Shown here in pieces: positions 2,838-52,200 of a stretch of 64,000 bases of DNA; the stretch's first letter is position 1, and each line of letters opens with the position of its first letter. A program made the position numbers and the translations under genes. Under the pieces are notes generated by a model, which saw only the letters and a program-made list of their open reading frames with translations, was not told where the DNA came from and did not search any database. The stretch is from the NCBI RefSeq assembly GCF_040802235.1, contig NC_133167.1:16546501-16610500 (forward strand), in the 5' to 3' direction. The stretch comes from Manis javanica (lineage: Eukaryota > Chordata > Mammalia > Pholidota > Manidae).

Positions 2838-4728
2838 AGAGCATCTTTATTGAGCAAGATGGAGAAGGGCTGTCTGTCCCACACACCCCAGGGCTTAGAG
2901 CCAGGGCGAAAGGCCTGAAGGTCCCTTTCAGGCTACGTCCAAGCGAGAGACGCTCTGGTCCATGTCCTCCAAGTACACCTCGTATTTGCCGCGGTCCTCG
3001 GGCGTGGCCCAACAAATGGTCAGCGTCGTGGTGGTACTACCGATCTCGAAGAACACCCTGGGCGGGAAGAGAGGGCAAAGGCGCTCCCCGTGTCAGGTAG
3101 AGCGCGCCCTGGGCCCAGCTAATTAGCTAGCTGTACTTCACCCCCAGTTTCTCCGCCCCCGTCCCACCCCCGCCGGGTTTCTGGGCCCTTTCCAGTCCAG
3201 GCGTCAGCTCCAGGCCTGGCCCTGCTGCCGGCCTCCGCCCTCGCCTGTCATCCTCCTCTATGTCTTGCCCATCCTTGGTCCAACCCACGACAGACGCAGG
3301 CTCACCCATGATCTCCGCAGTCAGCGTCACAGTGGCACCCTTGCGCGCCTTAGTGTTATCCGATCCCTTTTGAATCTTCGCCGGGACTAAATGAAGGGAA
3401 AGGGAATGCGAACCAGTGAGGGATCTAAGGTGAGGCGAGACAGGGACATTGCCTCCCCAGCTAATACCGGGCCCTAGATATGAAATGGATTTAAACTCGC
3501 AGTGGACATTGAGCAAGTCTGTATCCTCTCTGGGGCTTTATCTCCTTAGCTGTTAAATGAGACTAATATCTGCCCCCTCTGACTTCTCAGGGGTGAAAGC
3601 CGGGAATGCTCACACTTTTTGCAGTGCCTTGTAGACAGCTCTGGGTAGTGGAAATTTCCCTGTCGAAGCCAGAAGATCTGAGCTCTGCCCCTGGCTCTCT
3701 GTGACCTTGGGGCCCTGGAGTTGAGTGATTGAAGCCCTCAGTGGACTTCTGTGTCTCGGTGGGACGGATCCTGAGGTAGGGACTGGCTCCCCAGCCCTCT
3801 TGACACTGTGCCCCAGGCTATGCCTGGGGCTGGCCTGGTCCGCACCCATCCCAGACTTAGCTAGGCCCAGCGGTAAATGAGCACAGCTGGAACCAGCTGC
3901 AGGCGTCTGGGGGTGGTATTGCTCAGCGGGGGCACTGTACCTGGGGTGTGCATACCTTCTATAAGGATTCCCGCCGAGTTGGAGCCGAAGGGGTTGATTA
4001 CATTGATGCTGTACTGGTCCAGGTCTGCCAGCTCATCATCGCGCACCAACAATGTGACTACGTCAGGGTTCTTGAAGACATGGCGATTGATACTTTGGCC
4101 CTTCTCGTAGCTCCTTGATGTCATTGCTCCAACGGATGAATGGGTCGGGAAAGCAGAAATGCTGGCAAGTCAGCTGGGCTGGGCTGCCCTCCATCAACAC
4201 TGCATCCTTCAGTGGCTCTAGCACTCGTGGCAGCCCCTTCTCACATAGTTCCTCTGGGACCTAATAGCCAGCCAGGTCAGGGCCCAGACCTCCCAAGATG
4301 CAGCTCCCACCTGCAGCCCTGCGCAGCGCTCCTGTCCCCTGCCCTCCCTTTCTGTCCACTAGAACCTTAATGTAGGCGTAGAGAAGTAGAGGGCTGTGCC
4401 TGAAGAGTTACCCTGGTAAAATGATGTACTCTTGTCGGCCACCCTTCCACACCTCAGTAACATCTGTCCCCTAAACCCAATGACCCTAGCAGTCCATGAC
4501 ACTGTGCTCATGGACCACCCACCCACAATGTAGGAATGTGCTTTCTACAACTTCAGCTCCCTTCCTCCTGAGGGCTCCAGGGCTCCCCGCTCACCTGCAG
4601 CCCCTGTAGAGGCCTGAATGTGAATGGTTGCTCTCTGGACCTGGGGGTCCTTGATATCCAGGGTGCATTCCTAAGGTTGGGCAGCAACCACTGTTTGTTT
4701 TTTTTTTGGTGGGAGCTGCTTTGGATAT
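2838..4728 (-). pseudogene. SPEGNB: SPEGNB (SPEG neighbour) decayed four-exon gene
   Basis: Four exon relics line up with the small SPEGNB protein, an N-terminal IQ-like segment plus two Ig domains, about 238 residues in human from memory. They are 4595-4728, 3956-4260, 3245-3386 and 2938-3057; the last ends ...RLDVA then TGA at 2940-2938. Ig segments such as DLDQYSINVINPFGSNSAGI and KARKGATVTLTAEI are easily read. Lesions seen: the expected start codon is ATA (4728-4726); a ten-T run on the plus strand (4698-4707) expands the Lys-Lys codons and shifts frame; an in-frame TAG lies at 4673-4671; indels disrupt the IQ segment and the start of exon 2; a 4-nt insertion (4086-4089) shifts frame in Ig1; the exon-3 donor is GC (3244-3243); and three residues are missing near the C-terminus. 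A full-length product is not possible from this sequence. It lies tandem between SPEG and GMPPA, as in human. Confidence 0.88.
2846..2851 (-). terminator. SPEGNB: Poly(A) signal AATAAA of the SPEGNB relic
   Basis: AATAAA on the minus strand (2851-2846) lies about 90 nt past the SPEGNB stop codon, fitting a short 3'UTR with cleavage near 2825. The GMPPA promoter follows about 500 nt downstream. Confidence 0.6.
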
Positions 4729-4967
4729 CTAGGTGAAGGGAAGGTAAACAGGAGGTCTAGGATGACACAGAGATTCTGACTTTAAACCTTTTCCCTGCAG
4801 ATTCAGAACATCTCAGTGGGAGAGGTGTCTGGGGGTGGTCTGAAGGTGGGACTCACCATCGGGGGTCAACTTCAGGACTCCGGTGGACTAGCTGGGTAAT
4901 AGGTGGCACAGAGCCCTTCTGGACGGCACAGCAGGGGCACAGGCAGGTGCTCAGTCCCAGGCCCTGG

Positions 4968-4974
4968 TTTTATA
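4968..4974 (-). promoter_or_regulatory. SPEGNB: Relic TATA box of SPEGNB
   Basis: The minus strand reads TATAAAA at 4974-4968, about 240 nt upstream of the SPEGNB exon carrying the lost start codon. Spacing is right for a transcription start near 4940 and a short 5'UTR exon. The box looks intact even though the coding sequence is broken. Assignment to SPEGNB is inference from position. Confidence 0.45.
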
Positions 4975-13200: not shown

Positions 13201-16200
13201 AGGAAAGCTTGTTAGGAGTGGGTGGTCAGGACAGCAGCATGCCCCTCTTTCACTGTACCCCAGTGTTCCCCCCAAAGGGGTCCCACACTGAGGTGCCAAC
13301 AACATGAGGTAAATATAGTTTCATCAATGGCTACCTCCAGCCTAAGTGAGGGAACCAGGTAGGCAGGGAAAGAGAGAGGCCAGGAGGAGAAGAGAAAGGT
13401 AACTCCAGCCCAGCTCTGCCAGTCCCACTTCCATTCCCCTGGGCCAACCCTGGTTGGTAAAGTGGACAAGAAACAGCTTTCTTCTTTCAGGGAGGGGGAG
13501 AGGCTGGATTAAGGTAACACTGTCTCAACAGGAAATCAGCTGCACAAGCAAACCAGAGCTGGGAGGGAAGCCCCAAGTGGGAAGGGATCAGCTGTCCCCG
13601 GGTCTCTGGGCTGGCTTCTCTCTCTCTCTCTCCCTCTTTCCCCATCCTTCTCCAGCTTTGTACCCCACACACACCCCCAGCAGGCCTCCCTCCCTCCTCT
13701 TCACTTACTGCAGCCCCCACTGCCCACTGGCTCATGGGAAGACACCTCTGCCCTCCTACCCAATGCCCCTGCAGGACACAGTCACCCCAAGCCCAGCTGA
13801 GGCACTGCTGGACTGGTTCTGAGGAGTTTCATCTGGAAGCCAGGGAAGCACAGAACTGGTGACTGGAGGGGGGCCTGCAAGCAGACTGGCTTGGTGGGCC
13901 TCCTCCTCCTCCATGCCACTCTGGAAAACAGCCTTCCCAAGCCTTTGCTGGTAGTCCTTGAGTAATACCCCTTCTTCAGGTGGGGGACCAGGGTGGCCCC
14001 CGTTGGAGAATACCTCAATCCCTGCAGCCCAGGACACTCAGGCAGAAAAACAGACCGGGGCATATTCCAAGTCCGTCCCACCAGCACAGAGCCCTGAGGC
14101 CCCTTGTCTATGCAGAAGTGCCTTCTCTGGGGGCAGCAGGACAGGGCAGGGCAACCAGGTATTCAGGGATGTAGAGAAATGGAGAATTGGGGGCACAGTC
14201 CAGATTAGGGGCCTCCAGGATGGGAGAGAAAGAGTGTCTTTGTGTGTATGTTCAAGCCTATACACATCTGGAGGGGACGGTAGGGGCAGAGGAGCCCTAT
14301 CCTGAGCTCCTTCCCAGTTAGAGACCTTCTGGGATCTCCCAGGAGGAAGGAGGCTAGCCAAAGAAAGTCACAAATATGGTGTCCCAAAGTCAGCTCTGGG
14401 GTCTGGCTGCAGAGGGTCATATAGTCCAGCTCTCTGGCTGCCCCACTACTACCAGCTCTGCGACTTGGACAAGCTACTTAGTGTGGCTAAGCCTCTGTTT
14501 CCTCATCTGTGAAATAGGAATGACAAGAATATTTCCTAAACAAGGAGGAAGGGTTGAGTTCTTATAAAGTGCTTAATAGGACACGTGGTGTTGCTAATTA
14601 GTGGCAGCTGCTGCTAGTATTGTTATTGTTGTTTTCCTGACTCCAGGCTCCTTCCACCACTGCCTGGCTCCTCCCTGTGGTCCATCTCTCACCCGGCTAC
14701 AACTGCCCCTAAGGCGGGGAGGGGGCTACTTACCCAGAGGGCCTAGATTACCTGATTCACTGCGCACATACTGGTGACCCAAATCCTCTTGATCGCTGGC
14801 GGAGAGGCTTGGCTGTGATAACCCCTTGTCCTTCCTCAGCTTAGAGAGTCCCCAGCGCAGCCGGCTTCGCCTTTCCCCAGGAGCTGGGAAGACCCAGGCC
14901 CATGAGCACTTGCTCAGTGGGTACCAGCAAGTTCCCACCTCCCTGCAACCAGCAGCCCAGAGGGGTAGAGAACTTCTGGTCTCCACCCTGGCCTGCTCCC
15001 TTGCCAGCCTCTGCCCCTCAGCCAGGCTTGCTCCATCCTGGGCCCTCCAGCACCCCCTCAGCCCTCTCCTCCTTCCAGAGCTTCTCTCCAGCGCACTCCT
15101 CTTCTGAGCTCTGTACCCGTCATCCCAGCCTTGCACCCTTACCCCATCCGCATGTGTTCACACATTCACCTGCTACTCTGCCCCTCCTCACCTGAGGAGC
15201 CCGACGTGGCGCTGGCTTCGGAGCCCAGGGACTCTGCAGAAGGCGTGGTGGCCCCGGCCTGGGCAGCCAGCTGGTTTTGCGGGAGCCCGAGGCGCCGCAG
15301 ACTCTCGCCCTCGGACGTGGCCCTGCGCAGCCTTCCGAACAGCGGCGTGCTGCGGCCCGACGCGCCTCCCGAGTCCTCGCTGCTGCCGCTGCGCTGCAGC
15401 CGGCTCGACAGCCGCTCCAGCGTGGAGCTGAGCCTCCTGCGCACCGTCAGCACCGGGGAGCCCCGCGCCGAGCTGCCACCCTCCGAACTCTCCCCGTCGC
15501 CACTGCGGGCCTCCCAGGCCGGGTGGCGCTGTGCGGGCGGGGTCCGCCGCAGGCGCTGGGACAGCGACAGCGAGAGGCGGCGGACGAGGCCCGGCTCCCC
15601 GACCGCCCTCAGGTCCTGCACGGAGCGGGAGCGCTCAGGCCGTCGCACTAGCTCCAGCGGTGTTCCCGCCGGGCTGGGCCGGTACATGCCATCCTCCTCA
15701 GCCCCGCGGAAGGGGCCGCGCTCTTCGGACCGCGAGCGGCTCAGCAGCCGCAGCCCCCGCGACAGGGGCGACTCACGGCTGCGCTTGAACTTGGCCTCGA
15801 ACACAGCCTCTGACTCCAGGTTCTCGATGCTGCTGCTGGGACCGCTACCTGGCCTGCGGGGCACCGTGCGCACCGTGGGCACCTGGGCTTTCTCGGCTAG
15901 CAGAGTGGGAGGCCCGGCCGAAGGCGCGCGCTTCTGGGAGGCTCCCGGCGGTGGGGAGGCCACTCGAGCGAACACAGCCGGGTGGGGCTTGGGCTCCGAC
16001 TGGGGAGAGGCAGGGCCCTGCGGGGGGCCTTGCGTGTGGTCTGCCAGCTGGAGCGTCTGCATGATCTGGGCATAGGGTGTGAGCGGGGGCGCTAGCGTTT
16101 GCAGAGCCACAGGGCGCTGTGTAAGCTTGGGGGCTGGTGCTAGTGCTGGCACGGACTCTGCGGCCTTCTTTTGGGTAGGCTCGGGTGCCGAGGGCTCGGG

Positions 16201-46200: not shown

Positions 46201-49200
46201 GTGCAATGTACTCTGGAGGTCAAAAAATTTTACAAGCTTCCAAACATAAGACAAGATAATAGCAACCCAAGATTTAAGCAGTAATAGTGTTGTCACAGGG
46301 CAGCATGTGGTAGACTGTCAAATCAGTGATGCCCCTGGATTCAAAAGAGGGAGCAGCAGGTGGGGCCTGTAGCCATCTGAGAAGCCTCATGAAGATCAGC
46401 TTTGATTTTGTCCATTCACCAAATAGTAATGCTGCACTTACTGCATACTAAGCTCTGTATGGGTACAAGGGAGACAATAGGAAATAAGATGCAGTCCCTG
46501 CTTAGAGGAAGCTTGTATACACAAAGAGATCATAAAACTCCACTGTCATGGATCTCTCTGGGTATTTTCTGACTCTGACTTTCTATAAACTAGATAAAAC
46601 ACGGTATATGTAGCCAAAAGAGCAATGAAATCCCAATTATGCTGTTTTCTAGCCACATAATCTTGGGCAAATTAAATAACCTCTCTGCACCTCAGTTTTG
46701 TTACCTGCAAAATGGAGCTGATAAATAACACCCAACATCTTGCAGGGCTGGCATAAGGATTAAAATTTTAAAAAATCCCTAAGAGGCAGTTAATATAATA
46801 CCTGAGACATGGCCGTGAGAACCCAATGTGGCTAGTATGATGATGGACAGGTACCTAATCATTTCTAAGAATACTTAAATGAAAAATGAAGTAATTTTAA
46901 TGAAGAAAAACACAGGGTGGTAAGTGCAACAAAAGAGACACTAGCAAGGTTGTCCTGGGAGAAGTGGGTAGAGGCATCTGGCCTGGGGAAGCAGCAGAGG
47001 GTAGGAGCCAATCAAGAATGGCTTCCTCTGCTTGGCTGCAGGAGTGGGCCCCAAGCTGATATTTAGTTAGGGGCAGGGACATTCTGGCTATTGGCCACCA
47101 CCCATGGGAAAACTGGGAGACAACACACAGGCTGGCATGTGACTGCAGTCAGCCCAGTCATGTAGGAACTCAAGGATGGCAGAGAGGAGGCTAGAAGGGA
47201 AGCTGAGTCATATCTTAGTGGCCACAGATGGATCAGGGGATGGTGCTGGTATGGATAGGCAGAATGGTGTGCTGGCTGGCCCCAAATTTGCCTGTAAGAG
47301 GAACCTGACAAATTACTTAAGACTGGTTTCCATCACTTCGCCTACAGAGGGGTGGGGTTTGGAGTGGCTCCTTAGGTTTCCACAAATACCTCCTTCCATG
47401 GTTAGGTCCTTGACCCTACAGCCCAGCAGAACACTGGCTGGACCTAAGGCACCTATGGCAGGCATCTGGGCACCAGATCTTTGCTTACATGTCGGTTCCA
47501 CCCAACCTCCATCAAAACATACTCACACTGTGCCTCATCAGTGGATGGGTTCTAGCACAAGGGCCTTCCCAATCCTTCACTCAAACTCCAACCTGGGTCC
47601 ATGCCTTCCCAGGAAAACCACAACCCCGCCATGTCTAGCATCCTTGCTCTCCCCAAACGCCCTCCCACCTAGGGCTCAGCACCTTCTCAGCCCTCCCTGA
47701 GGCCTTACCAATCTCAGGCGAGGTGGGCCGGGCCCGGCGACCTCTGCCCTGGCTGCGAGCCCCTCGGCGGTCCCAGGCACCCCAAGGACCATCCTCCTCT
47801 GGTCCTCTGCGCAGTCTCTTCTCGGCATCAGGCCCCGCCCTATTTCTCTCCAAGGTCTGGGACACAGCAGCGCCCTCCTGGCCCGGCGTGGCCCAGGGCA
47901 GGAAGCGCACGGTCTGCGCCGGGGGCTCCCGCTTCCGACTCGGGGGTGCTCTCGTCCTGGCCTCGGGGGGATCGGCGGCCGAGGGTGGCACGGGGCTCCG
48001 GCACTCCTGGATGGCCCTGCCCCGGGTCAGCGGGAACTGGTCCCGGCGCCTAACCTCCTGCTGCGGGCCTTCCCCTGGCTCCGATCTGCCTGCCGGTCCG
48101 CGGCCCCGGGGCCTCCCCGGCTCGTCCCCCGGCTTCCCCGCGACGCTGGGAGGGGGCAGCTGGGCGGCGGCGGGGCTCTCCGCCCGCGGGGTCTTGGGGG
48201 TTGAGGGCCGGGAGAAAAGCGGGGGCTCGCCGGGCTCTCGAGGGGACGGAGCACGCTGCAGCGTGGCGCGCAGGGACTCGTGCGAGCGCACCAGCTCCTC
48301 CCGTGACGTGGAGCGGCGGATACGGCCCAGTTCCTGGGCGAAGCGCAGCTCGAGGTCGGAGGCCGGGCTGCGCTGCCGCGTGCGCTCGTCCAGCGAGGCC
48401 GCCTTCTGCTGGAACAGGCGGCGCCGCTCGGCCACGCTGCCCGCCGCCGCCCGCAGCTCCTCCTGCGAGGCCTCGGACGTGCCCCACGGCGCACCGCCCT
48501 CGGACTTGGGCTGCTCCAGCGAGCGGGCCTTGCGCAGGGGCACCCACGGCCGCAGGGGCGCCGGCGGCGAGTCGCTGCGCTCCAGGCTGCGCCGTCGCTC
48601 CTCGAAAAACTGCAGCTTATCCAGAATGCGGGAGCCGGCCCGCACCAAGCGCGGCGAGCGGCCCAGCGCTGACAGGCGGCCCGAGGCCTCGCTCAAGGGC
48701 GTCTGGGGCCGGGACTCTGCCGTGCCAGCTAGCGAGGGCCCCGACGACTTGGACTTTTTCCCTCGCTTCTCTTCGGCGGTGGCGTCCTCGGGCAGCACGG
48801 GCTCCTGAGTGCGCCGGTGAGGTGATGTGGGGGTGGCCGGGGGTTGGGCGCTGGGTCCCGGCGGGGCCCGCTTACCCACCCGAGGGGACGGTGGTGGCAG
48901 CAGCGCGGATTTGGAGGGAGGCGGTAGGGCCGGGCGACGTGGGGCTTCACTGGCCGGCTGAGGCTGAAGGTCAGGTTCCTCCCTGTGCAGTCCACTCTGA
49001 GGGACGCTGCTGCAGAACCAAGATGAAGATGGGTAGAAGATTCAGGGGGCCTCGAAGACCTTCAGCTCGTGACAGGAATTGGGTGGTGGGACATGCTGGG
49101 AAGGCTTGGGGTGATGTGGGCCAGACCCTCTGCCCCCTCCCCCCTAAGAGGAAGGCACAGCCAGAGCAGGTGCTGGGGAGAGGCTGGGGGCTCTGGCACC

Positions 49201-52200
49201 AGAAGATTGGGCTGGTGGCTGGGTCCAAGTACAGACAGCCCCAGGGGCTCTGGCCAGCACCCTCCCCCCAGCCCTGGAAGCTGGGAAACAGCAGAAAGAG
49301 AACTGAGTTGTGGAAGACAAAAGAATGAGGCATAGGACCCAAAGGATGAAGTGGTGGGGGTAGGAAGGAGGGTGGGTGGGGATGGGCCCTCTCGGGAATG
49401 CAGCCTCCCACTCATTCCTGCCCCCAGCTGGCCCCCACAGCCCTGCCCATCCTCGGCAGGACATACCCGCTTCACAGCGGCGGCCGTTAGAGGAACAGGC
49501 ACAAACCTTCAGGGAGCCATGCCCCAATCCCTGGGATTACCTAGCACCTACTCAGACCTGGGCCCATCACCAGTGCTGACAGGGTACATACAGCAGGTGG
49601 TAGCTGAGGTCCCTGGGGTGAGAGACCAAGATACCCAGGTTCCCATTCCTTTGATCATCCTGCCCTCAGCACAGGCCTTTGACTTTGCCTACCTCTTGCA
49701 CTCCCTCACCCCCTGGAAAGTTCTCATTTAAGTCCTTGGGACCCCCTCCCGCCACCCCCACCAAAAGCACAGCAATTCCCCAAAGGGGTATGTTCAGAAA
49801 TAACTCAGCTCAGAAATAACTACCGCGTGGGCCTGAATAGTGGGTGTGAAAGAAGAGGAGGAAGGAAGGAGATGGTCATCCCAGAGTACCCCTCTCACCT
49901 ACAGAGCTCTGGCCCAGGAGCTGGGCCTCAGTTTTCCCCATCTGGACTCTGGGGGTCACATCAAACAAAGGTTTAGCAAGAAAAGGAATCTAAGATATTA
50001 GCATCATACCTGACACATTAGAGAGAGCTTAATAAAAACTTAGGGAATGACTCGTTGAGTACTTACTGTGTGCCAGGCCTGTATTAAATGCTTAAAATGC
50101 ACTGAGCCTTATAATCCTCACAACAGTCCTCTGAGATAGGAAATGTTATTACCCATTTGCAGATGAAGAAACTGAGGCTTAAAGAGGTCAAATTCATTAC
50201 CAAAGTGACATGGCTAGGAAATGGCTGGAGCTAGGACTGGAACCCAAGTAGTCTGACTCCTGAACCTTTGCTCACTCCAAAATGTCTGGGATTCTGGGGG
50301 CACAGAGGGAAGAAAAAACAGGACACCAACTACAAGCAGAAGTTCTAGGGGTGCCTGAGGGTAAGAATGTTTTAGACTAGCAACCCAGTCTCTGAGTGGG
50401 GTGGCAGGGCAGATGGCAATTCAGAGTGCCCTGAGGGAACAGAACCTCAGCCATCCACCTGCAGGGAGGCAGAGCCTACTCTGGGGGAGGGACAATAGAA
50501 TCCCTGAGGAATGGAGGAATTGCCTGTGGGAACTGGGTGAGGTATGAAGAGAAATTGGGGACAGCAGAGGAGGCTGCTTGCAGGCAGTTTCAAGCTGTAG
50601 GCCAGCCTCTGTGCCACAAACATCACTAAGGAAATAGGTTCCTCAGAAGTTGCCATAGCAACTCCAGGCTCCGGCTGAGTCCTGGCAAAGAAAGGCAGGG
50701 AAGGAAAAGGCAAGTCCAGGGCATGAGAGCACCTGGTTAATGCCAACCGGATAAAGCGAGGGAGCCTTCCCTGCCCCAGACCTCTCCCCTGTCACCACTA
50801 GCCACTCCAGCCACACTTAAAACAGCCTCCCACCACCAGGCCCCTTCTTTCTCCCCCATGAGGTCCCACCCCCCACACCCACACCCATTATAAATCAGGA
50901 CCTCTTCTCAGCTCCTCAAATGCCCCCAGTGCCCCTATCACCAGCCACTCCCCTCTTCTACTAGAGCACTGCCAGCCTCCAAATCTCCAAAAATGTCTCC
51001 ACTGCCTCACTCCAACATCTCCATGCTTCACCACCCCTACCAGGACAACCTTTACCCCCACCCTCAGGTCTTTCCCACAAGATCATCACATGCCCCCAGC
51101 CCCCAGCCCTGCAAGCCCTGGGCCCCCCCAACCCCAGCTCTGTCTCCATCACTCCCTGTCCCAGCCCCCTGCCTCCCACGCCCCCCGCATTCTCCTGCTT
51201 TCCCAGGCCCTGGCCCCATCTGCTCCCTAGCCACCTCACTCTCTTCTCTCTCCTGGTTGTGGTCCTGCTCCCTTGCTCTCTCCTGCTCTCCCGGGAGCTG
51301 CTGTGCAGAAAGGTTCCATTCCTCCCAGAAAAAGGCCCACAAGGGAACGGGAATGTGCAGAGAGATGACAAGGCAGCAGCTGCTGAGACAGCAGGCACAG
51401 AGGGGGCCTTCACGGGGGGGTCCTGGGGACAACTGGAGCCTGAATGGGCGAGGTGAGAGAGGGCCCCCTGGGAAAGTGGAGCTTTTGGAGGAGATGAGGA
51501 AGGGACAGAGGGGGCCATGAGACCATGGAGAAGGCATGGTGAGCCAGGACAGGTGGGAGCAGGAGGTGGGTGGTGATGGCACAGGAGGAGGATGGAACCG
51601 TGTGGGAAGATAGTGGGTAGGTGGGGCCAGGAGTAGAAGCAGCGGGCGTGGGGGTGGGTGGAGAAGCGCACAGAGGGATGAATGGTGCAGGGGATGGAGG
51701 GTGGAGGCTGACGGAGGGTGAGGGGTAGTGCAGGGCAACATGGTGAGGTGGGACAGTGCAGGCCATGTGAGGCCATTACTTACACGTGGATCGAGAGCGC
51801 CCGTCCTCTGTACAGACTGAATGCGCTGCCATACAGGTCACTGGCCACCGAAAGGCTATCCTCTGACCCCCAGCTTGCGCCCACCAGATTAGCTCGAGAT
51901 GCCCGCACCAGCGGCTCCACCCCCAGGTGCCGTGGCCCGGCCCCGGTTGCCTGTGCTTGCCTTGGGCTGCCCGGGAGGCGGCGGATGCCACCCCTGCTGC
52001 CCGCTTCCTGCTCCAAGACCGTCTGCCCGCTGCCCCACCAGCTCACTTGCTCCTCTGAAGTGCCTGTCACGGAGGTTGGGGGTGTGTCCAGAGAGGTGCC
52101 CACCAGGGTGTCGGAGCCCCCTAGAGAAAGGAGCACGGTGAAGTCCAGGAACCTCTTGTGGGAAGCTTGCCTGTCTGTTCTTTGAATACCCCAGACAGCT

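What the first reader, a model, noticed from the sequence alone, without database searches (positions are those of the whole stretch)
2838..4974. SPEGNB is a probable unitary pseudogene in this species
Exon relics with correct order and mostly correct splice sites encode recognisable SPEGNB segments, but the ATG is ATA, an in-frame TAG lies at 4673-4671, a 4-nt insertion at 4086-4089 and other indels break the frame, and a donor is GC. The introns are still present, so it is not a retrocopy, and no intact copy lies nearby. Lesions are many and independent, pointing to old loss rather than one sequencing error. The locus, and its muscle neighbour SPEG, are otherwise intact.
Basis: partly seen in the sequence, partly recalled or inferred. 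Interest (0 to 1): 0.8.

Follow-up and report, generated by a model that had tools for sequence, protein, structure and literature searches.

The report
Broken SPEGNB gene beside SPEG
In this mammal, most likely a pangolin, the little-known muscle gene SPEGNB still sits in its usual place with its introns but is too damaged to make the full protein; this is an ordinary kind of gene loss, and the same gene is already known to be broken in some people.

Summary
The finding is real. Between GMPPA and SPEG, minus strand, lie four coding-exon relics of SPEGNB with introns in place. A frameshift-aware alignment to a RECALLED human SPEGNB gives 228 codons, 173 identical, and four frame-breaking indels (+1, -1, -1, +4). 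The +4 break has support free of recall: Pfam I-set positions 1-48 and 46-86 lie in two frames of one exon (second half weak, E 0.056). The recall fits a published 75-bp pig amplicon. No second copy was found in the 2.56-Gb assembly. The first 81 GMPPA residues (79 identical to human) and two large SPEG exons are open.

Corrections: the TAG at 4673-4671 is not an independent lesion; ATA may not abolish the start; all four frameshifts lie in the 5' 43%, leaving a 146-codon ORF over the second Ig domain. That domain's decay, upstream ATGs and an NMD layout argue against a working short protein without excluding it. Age and sharing with relatives are untestable here. The species is probably a pangolin (decayed ENAM and AMELX). 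Verdict: unitary pseudogene, ordinary in kind; SPEGNB is already a polymorphic pseudogene in humans (PMC11576641).

The parts
4968..4974 (-). TATA-box-like TATAAAA
   Evidence: read in the sequence; function not tested
4857..4950 (-). probable 5' mostly non-coding exon, ends ...GATG before donor GTGAGT; its 5' end is a guess
   Evidence: donor and TATA spacing only; no transcript evidence
4595..4728 (-). SPEGNB exon relic E1: N-terminus and first half of the IQ motif; ATA where recalled human has Met1; +6 nt, +1 nt near 4671, -1 nt near 4610
   Evidence: alignment; 26 of 40 aligned codons identical to recalled human
4671..4673 (-). TAG, a stop only in the frame of the downstream block
3956..4260 (-). 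SPEGNB exon relic E2: first Ig (I-set) domain; -1 nt near 4256, +4 nt near 4092-4086, in-frame -6 nt near 3983
   Evidence: I-set profile split over two frames
4086..4092 (-). place of the 4-nt insertion that breaks the frame inside the first Ig domain
3245..3386 (-). SPEGNB exon relic E3: first half of second Ig domain; frame intact; followed by a GC donor (3244-3243)
   Evidence: 41 of 48 codons identical to recalled human
2928..3057 (-). SPEGNB exon relic E4: second half of second Ig domain, in-frame -9 nt near 2963, stop TGA 2930-2928
   Evidence: 33 of 42 codons identical to recalled human
2928..4124 (-). 146-codon ATG ORF of the spliced relic (E2 part, E3, E4) that stays open
2846..2851 (-). 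AATAAA polyadenylation-signal-like hexamer
   Evidence: function not tested

Best explanation
This is the SPEGNB gene of this mammal, decayed in place: a unitary pseudogene. Shown from the sequence: exon order, splice borders, four frame-breaking indels in the 5' part, a split first Ig domain. Inferred: any transcript made from the retained promoter would meet upstream ATGs whose reading frames stop early in E2, before two remaining exon junctions, and would be an NMD target; full-length SPEGNB (IQ motif plus two Ig domains) cannot be translated. Inferred: the gene was dispensable in this lineage and lost by relaxed selection.
For: Four frameshifts in 228 aligned codons. I-set profile continues across the +4 in another frame, bridged score 43.7 bits against 26.3 and 13.9 for the halves. 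I-set scores below recalled human: Ig1 43.7 against 67.5, Ig2 55.5 against 78.0, the last 14 profile positions of Ig2 unmatched; a SPEG Ig of the same window scores 63.5. IQ motif 14.5 bits against 26.8 in recalled human, cut-off 20.3. No second copy: one DNA match genome-wide; by protein, 5 listed rows at this locus with 52-82% identity, the other listed rows at most 40% (153 matches, 150 of 311 candidates scored). Neighbouring code open in the same sequence. NMD layout: ORF from ATG 4859 stops at 4220, about 400 nt before the last junction. In humans SPEGNB carries a frameshift allele at frequency 0.058 and transcripts were not found in two transcriptome sets (PMC11576641, passages).
Against: The human reference protein is recalled, not fetched. 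One assembly, no reads: a segregating allele or local error is not excluded. All four frameshifts lie in the 5' 43% (chance 0.036 if placed at random, post hoc), both indels in the 3' part are multiples of three, and 133 codons in the ancestral frame stay open to the stop; TATA-like and AATAAA motifs and most splice sites are retained. Arginine loss, a hoped-for sign of CpG decay, is not significant (6 of 16 against 49 of 213, p 0.22).
Confidence: 0.86

Rival explanations
1. Truncated but living gene: a short protein of 146 codons, holding half of Ig1 and Ig2, is still made and selected.
For: 146-codon ATG ORF to the ancestral stop; frameshifts only in the 5' part (p 0.036); 3' part 106 of 133 codons identical to recalled human against 68 of 96 in the 5' part.
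Against: Ig2 lost three residues of the F-G hairpin and 22.5 bits of I-set score, Ig1's Tyr-corner Gly is Asp. Five upstream ATGs precede the ORF's ATG. A neutral 133-codon stretch stays free of stops in 27 to 54% of simulations at 6 to 15% divergence, so the open frame is unremarkable.
Confidence: 0.07
2. Segregating loss-of-function haplotype or assembly error: intact alleles exist in the species.
For: SPEGNB loss alleles segregate in humans (PMC11576641); one assembly only.
Against: Four frameshifts plus in-frame indels and 55 of 228 changed residues are too many for a young allele or one error; three of the four frameshifts are not in a long homopolymer; nearby code is clean.
Confidence: 0.05
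3. The transcript or its DNA serves a non-coding role (for example a SPEG-linked enhancer or RNA).
For: Promoter-like and poly(A)-like motifs and splice sites retained.
Against: Nothing was found that points to it; Rfam gives 0 matches at gathering score in the window; retained motifs are expected by chance over short decay.
Confidence: 0.02

Closest known systems
SPEGNB (SPEG neighbour) of humans and pigs
   Same: Gene between SPEG and GMPPA (order in PMC11818634, passage); IQ motif plus two I-set domains by the recalled sequence; exon 2/3 border and primer sites fit the pig primers of PMC10137702.
   Different: Four frameshifts, 6-nt and 9-nt deletions, degraded IQ motif, split first Ig domain here.
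Human SPEGNB frameshift allele rs11437065 (polymorphic pseudogene, PMC11576641)
   Same: Loss of function of the same gene by a frameshift.
   Different: There one lesion in part of the population; here many lesions in the one assembly seen.
Unitary pseudogenes of pangolins (ENAM, AMELX, MYH16 and others, PMC12906968)
   Same: Decay in place of a single-copy gene; ENAM and AMELX are also decayed in this genome.
   Different: Those are shown in several species and dated; SPEGNB here is seen in one genome only.

Membership tests
unitary pseudogene | at the ancestral place with introns (not a retrocopy) | tested here: met
   neighbours SPEG and GMPPA
unitary pseudogene | disabling lesions in the code | tested here: met
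   four frameshifts; frame switch inside one Ig domain
unitary pseudogene | no functional copy elsewhere in the genome | tested here: met
   for the assembly as held; first-look candidates only in part scored
unitary pseudogene | functional orthologue in other species | not testable with these tools
   no mammal relatives held; pig expression and primers only from a paper
unitary pseudogene | fixed in the species | not testable with these tools
   one assembly, no reads
unitary pseudogene | evolves neutrally (dN/dS near 1) | not testable with these tools
   no orthologous DNA; indirect signs only
SPEGNB protein | IQ motif | tested here: not met
   bridged piece 14.5 bits, cut-off 20.3; recalled human 26.8
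SPEGNB protein | two I-set domains in one open frame | tested here: not met
   Ig1 split over two frames; Ig2 in one frame but shortened

The most novel reading that the evidence does not exclude
SPEGNB, described as weakly expressed in tongue and skeletal muscle (PMC9846087, passage), was lost in pangolins as one more part of the regressive remodelling of tongue and jaw muscle that also took the masticatory myosin MYH16 (PMC12906968, passages).
Probability: 0.1. Interest if true: 0.5.

Novelty: new member of a known kind. Interest (0 to 1): 0.27.

Why it matters
SPEGNB has no assigned function. A natural knock-out in a living mammal, next to human loss alleles, says that the gene can be dispensed with and gives a species in which its role in striated muscle could be sought by what is missing. 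Beyond that it is an ordinary gene loss.

Tried and rejected
Counting the TAG and the ATA as separate lesions: rejected (see observation check). Reading the 3' ORF as a sign of selection: weak, kept as rival. CpG decay through arginine loss: not significant. Dating by lineage SINEs: 13 recalled SINE consensus sequences other than MIR gave no match at E 1e-3 in the window (25 MIR rows) and none at E 1e-2 in ten further loci of this genome (11 MIR rows); the consensus letters are recalled, so absence is weak. Alpha-globin against the PDB did not place the species. Rfam and tRNA scans of the window: nothing. Literature: 'SPEGNB' is in 4 held papers, none on loss in another species in the passages seen; 'SPEG neighbor', 'SPEG neighbour' or LOC100996693 in 1; 'gene loss' with 'unitary pseudogene' and SPEG in 1; 'pangolin' with 'unitary pseudogene' in 8, 6 listed (listing only). 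Supplementary tables of gene-loss screens could not be searched. The two searches meant to find pangolin DNA for comparison gave none.

Full report
Place and gene. The window is C12:16546501-16610500 of a 2.56-Gb, 63-contig mammal assembly. On the minus strand it carries SPEG, then the relic, then the start of GMPPA, the order given for human 2q35 in PMC11818634 (passage). The start of GMPPA, joined from three exons, matches human GMPPA in the PDB (7d72_A) in 79 of 81 residues (exons). Two SPEG exons are open over 687 and 468 codons. The sequence of this region is therefore not generally faulty.

Anatomy. Between them the sequence gives four coding-exon relics: E1 4728-4595, E2 4260-3956, E3 3386-3245, E4 3057-2928 (my scripts used 3246 and 3058 for the E3/E4 border, with the same spliced result). 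All acceptors are AG; donors are GT except GC after E3 (3244-3243). Upstream lie TATAAAA (4974-4968) and a probable 5' exon that ends GATG before GTGAGT; downstream AATAAA (2851-2846). Introns are present, so it is no retrocopy.

Reference used. No SPEGNB sequence could be fetched. I used a human SPEGNB of 238 residues from memory. Three checks speak for it. The pig primers in PMC10137702 (table passage) span the E2/E3 border with a product of 75 bp, which is the length that the recalled protein predicts (24 codons plus 3 nt); the same stretch of the window counts 69 nt, a 6-nt deletion. The human frameshift p.Val64Glyfs (PMC11576641, passage) falls on a Val in the recalled protein. And the recalled protein carries the expected Pfam domains: IQ and two I-set.

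Lesions. The frameshift-aware alignment has 228 aligned codons, 173 identical (75.9%), and these breaks: +6 nt in E1 (in frame), +1 near 4671, -1 near 4610, -1 near 4256, +4 near 4092-4086, -6 near 3983 (in frame), -9 near 2963 (in frame). The +4 can be seen without the recalled protein: in E2, I-set profile positions 1-48 are matched in one frame (26.3 bits) and 46-86 in another (13.9 bits, E 0.056, below the curated cut-off); bridged with X they score 43.7 bits. The relic stands far above chance: 40 to 86 bits per block against at most 25.8 in 300 resamples; but SPEG's own Ig domains in the window reach 44.7 and 41.2, so the weakest block, E1, is placed by order and by its residues rather than by score alone.

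The TAG at 4673-4671 is a stop only in the frame of the block ECTLDIKD that follows; read from ATA, the frame passes it. It is the same event as the +1 or depends on where that is put. The ATA at 4728-4726 need not abolish translation, since the preceding exon ends in ATG and splicing would give ATG ATA TCC AAA. Neither changes the outcome: the ORF from that ATG ends after 59 codons in E2.

A second copy. A DNA search of the whole assembly with 2838-4974 finds only the window itself. A six-frame search with the recalled protein gives 153 matches; of 311 first-look candidates 150 were scored and the list is cut. Five listed rows are the relic (82, 77, 67, 54 and 52% identity); the other listed rows have at most 40%, many of them in a cluster at C12:55.3-55.55 Mb that I take for titin from its size and place. 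No intact SPEGNB is seen.

Decay against constraint. I-set scores fall from 67.5 to 43.7 bits (Ig1) and from 78.0 to 55.5 (Ig2, last 14 profile positions unmatched), while SPEG's first Ig in this window scores 63.5. The IQ motif falls from 26.8 to 14.5 bits, below its cut-off of 20.3. By part, 68 of 96 aligned codons in the 5' part and 106 of 133 in the 3' part equal recalled human (this call counts 229 aligned codons because the final Ala was added by hand). All four frameshifts fall in the 5' 43% of the code (0.036 by chance, chosen after looking), and a 146-codon ATG ORF runs from 4124 to the stop at 2930-2928. Simulated neutral change leaves 133 codons free of stops in 54, 43, 39 and 27% of runs at 6, 8, 10 and 15% divergence, so the open 3' frame does not need selection. 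Five ATGs lie upstream of that ORF in the spliced relic, and the first ORF ends about 400 nt before the last junction, a layout for nonsense-mediated decay (inference from known rules).

Species. ENAM in this genome is split over three frames with in-frame stops in 4 of 7 matches. AMELX lacks GT after its exon 5 and shows CACCG where the acceptor of its large exon is expected (the expected border is recalled). Frameshifts in ENAM are reported for aardvark, pangolins, xenarthrans, baleen whales and pygmy sperm whales (PMC3562159, passage); a shared AMELX splice-acceptor lesion in intron 3 and four shared ENAM lesions are reported for pangolins (PMC12906968, passages; whether my border is their intron 3 depends on exon numbering). 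Pangolin assemblies have 2,537 and 2,443 Mb (PMC9848057, passage), near the 2,560 Mb here; the other groups have larger genomes or other SINEs, by recall. No lineage SINE of my recalled list is found. I take it to be a pangolin, about 0.85, species not resolved.

Conclusion. Full-length SPEGNB cannot be encoded by this assembly. The best reading is a unitary pseudogene (0.86). SPEGNB is a gene of unknown function with low expression in tongue and skeletal muscle (PMC9846087, passage), and loss alleles segregate in humans (PMC11576641), so its loss is not surprising. Whether it is shared by pangolins, how old it is and whether it follows from their changed feeding muscles could not be tested here.

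Noticed in passing
G000:C5:117292290-117294982 (L038-L044): ENAM (enamelin) is split over three frames with stops in 4 of 7 profile matches, the picture of an old pseudogene.
   Followed up: partly
G000:C19:6414604-6416654 (L034, L036): AMELX keeps a long open large exon but lacks GT after exon 5 and an AG at the expected acceptor of the large exon.
   Followed up: partly
G000:C4:90824367-90828500 (L020) against C63 (L021): A nuclear copy of mitochondrial DNA is 99.72% identical to the mitochondrial contig over 3935 nt, beside several older full-length cytochrome b copies.
   Followed up: no
L021:2813-3048 (C63): The stretch after cytochrome b in the mitochondrial contig holds tandem repeats of about 78 nt.
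   Followed up: no
window 1-64000: Only MIR-like SINE copies (25 rows) and none of 13 recalled lineage SINEs; a weak MIR match (3495-3568) lies in the intron between E2 and E3 of the relic.
   Followed up: partly
window 14969-16075 and 48054-49328, + strand: Long open frames of 368 and 424 codons run antisense to the two large SPEG exons, probably a by-product of their G+C-rich code.
   Followed up: no
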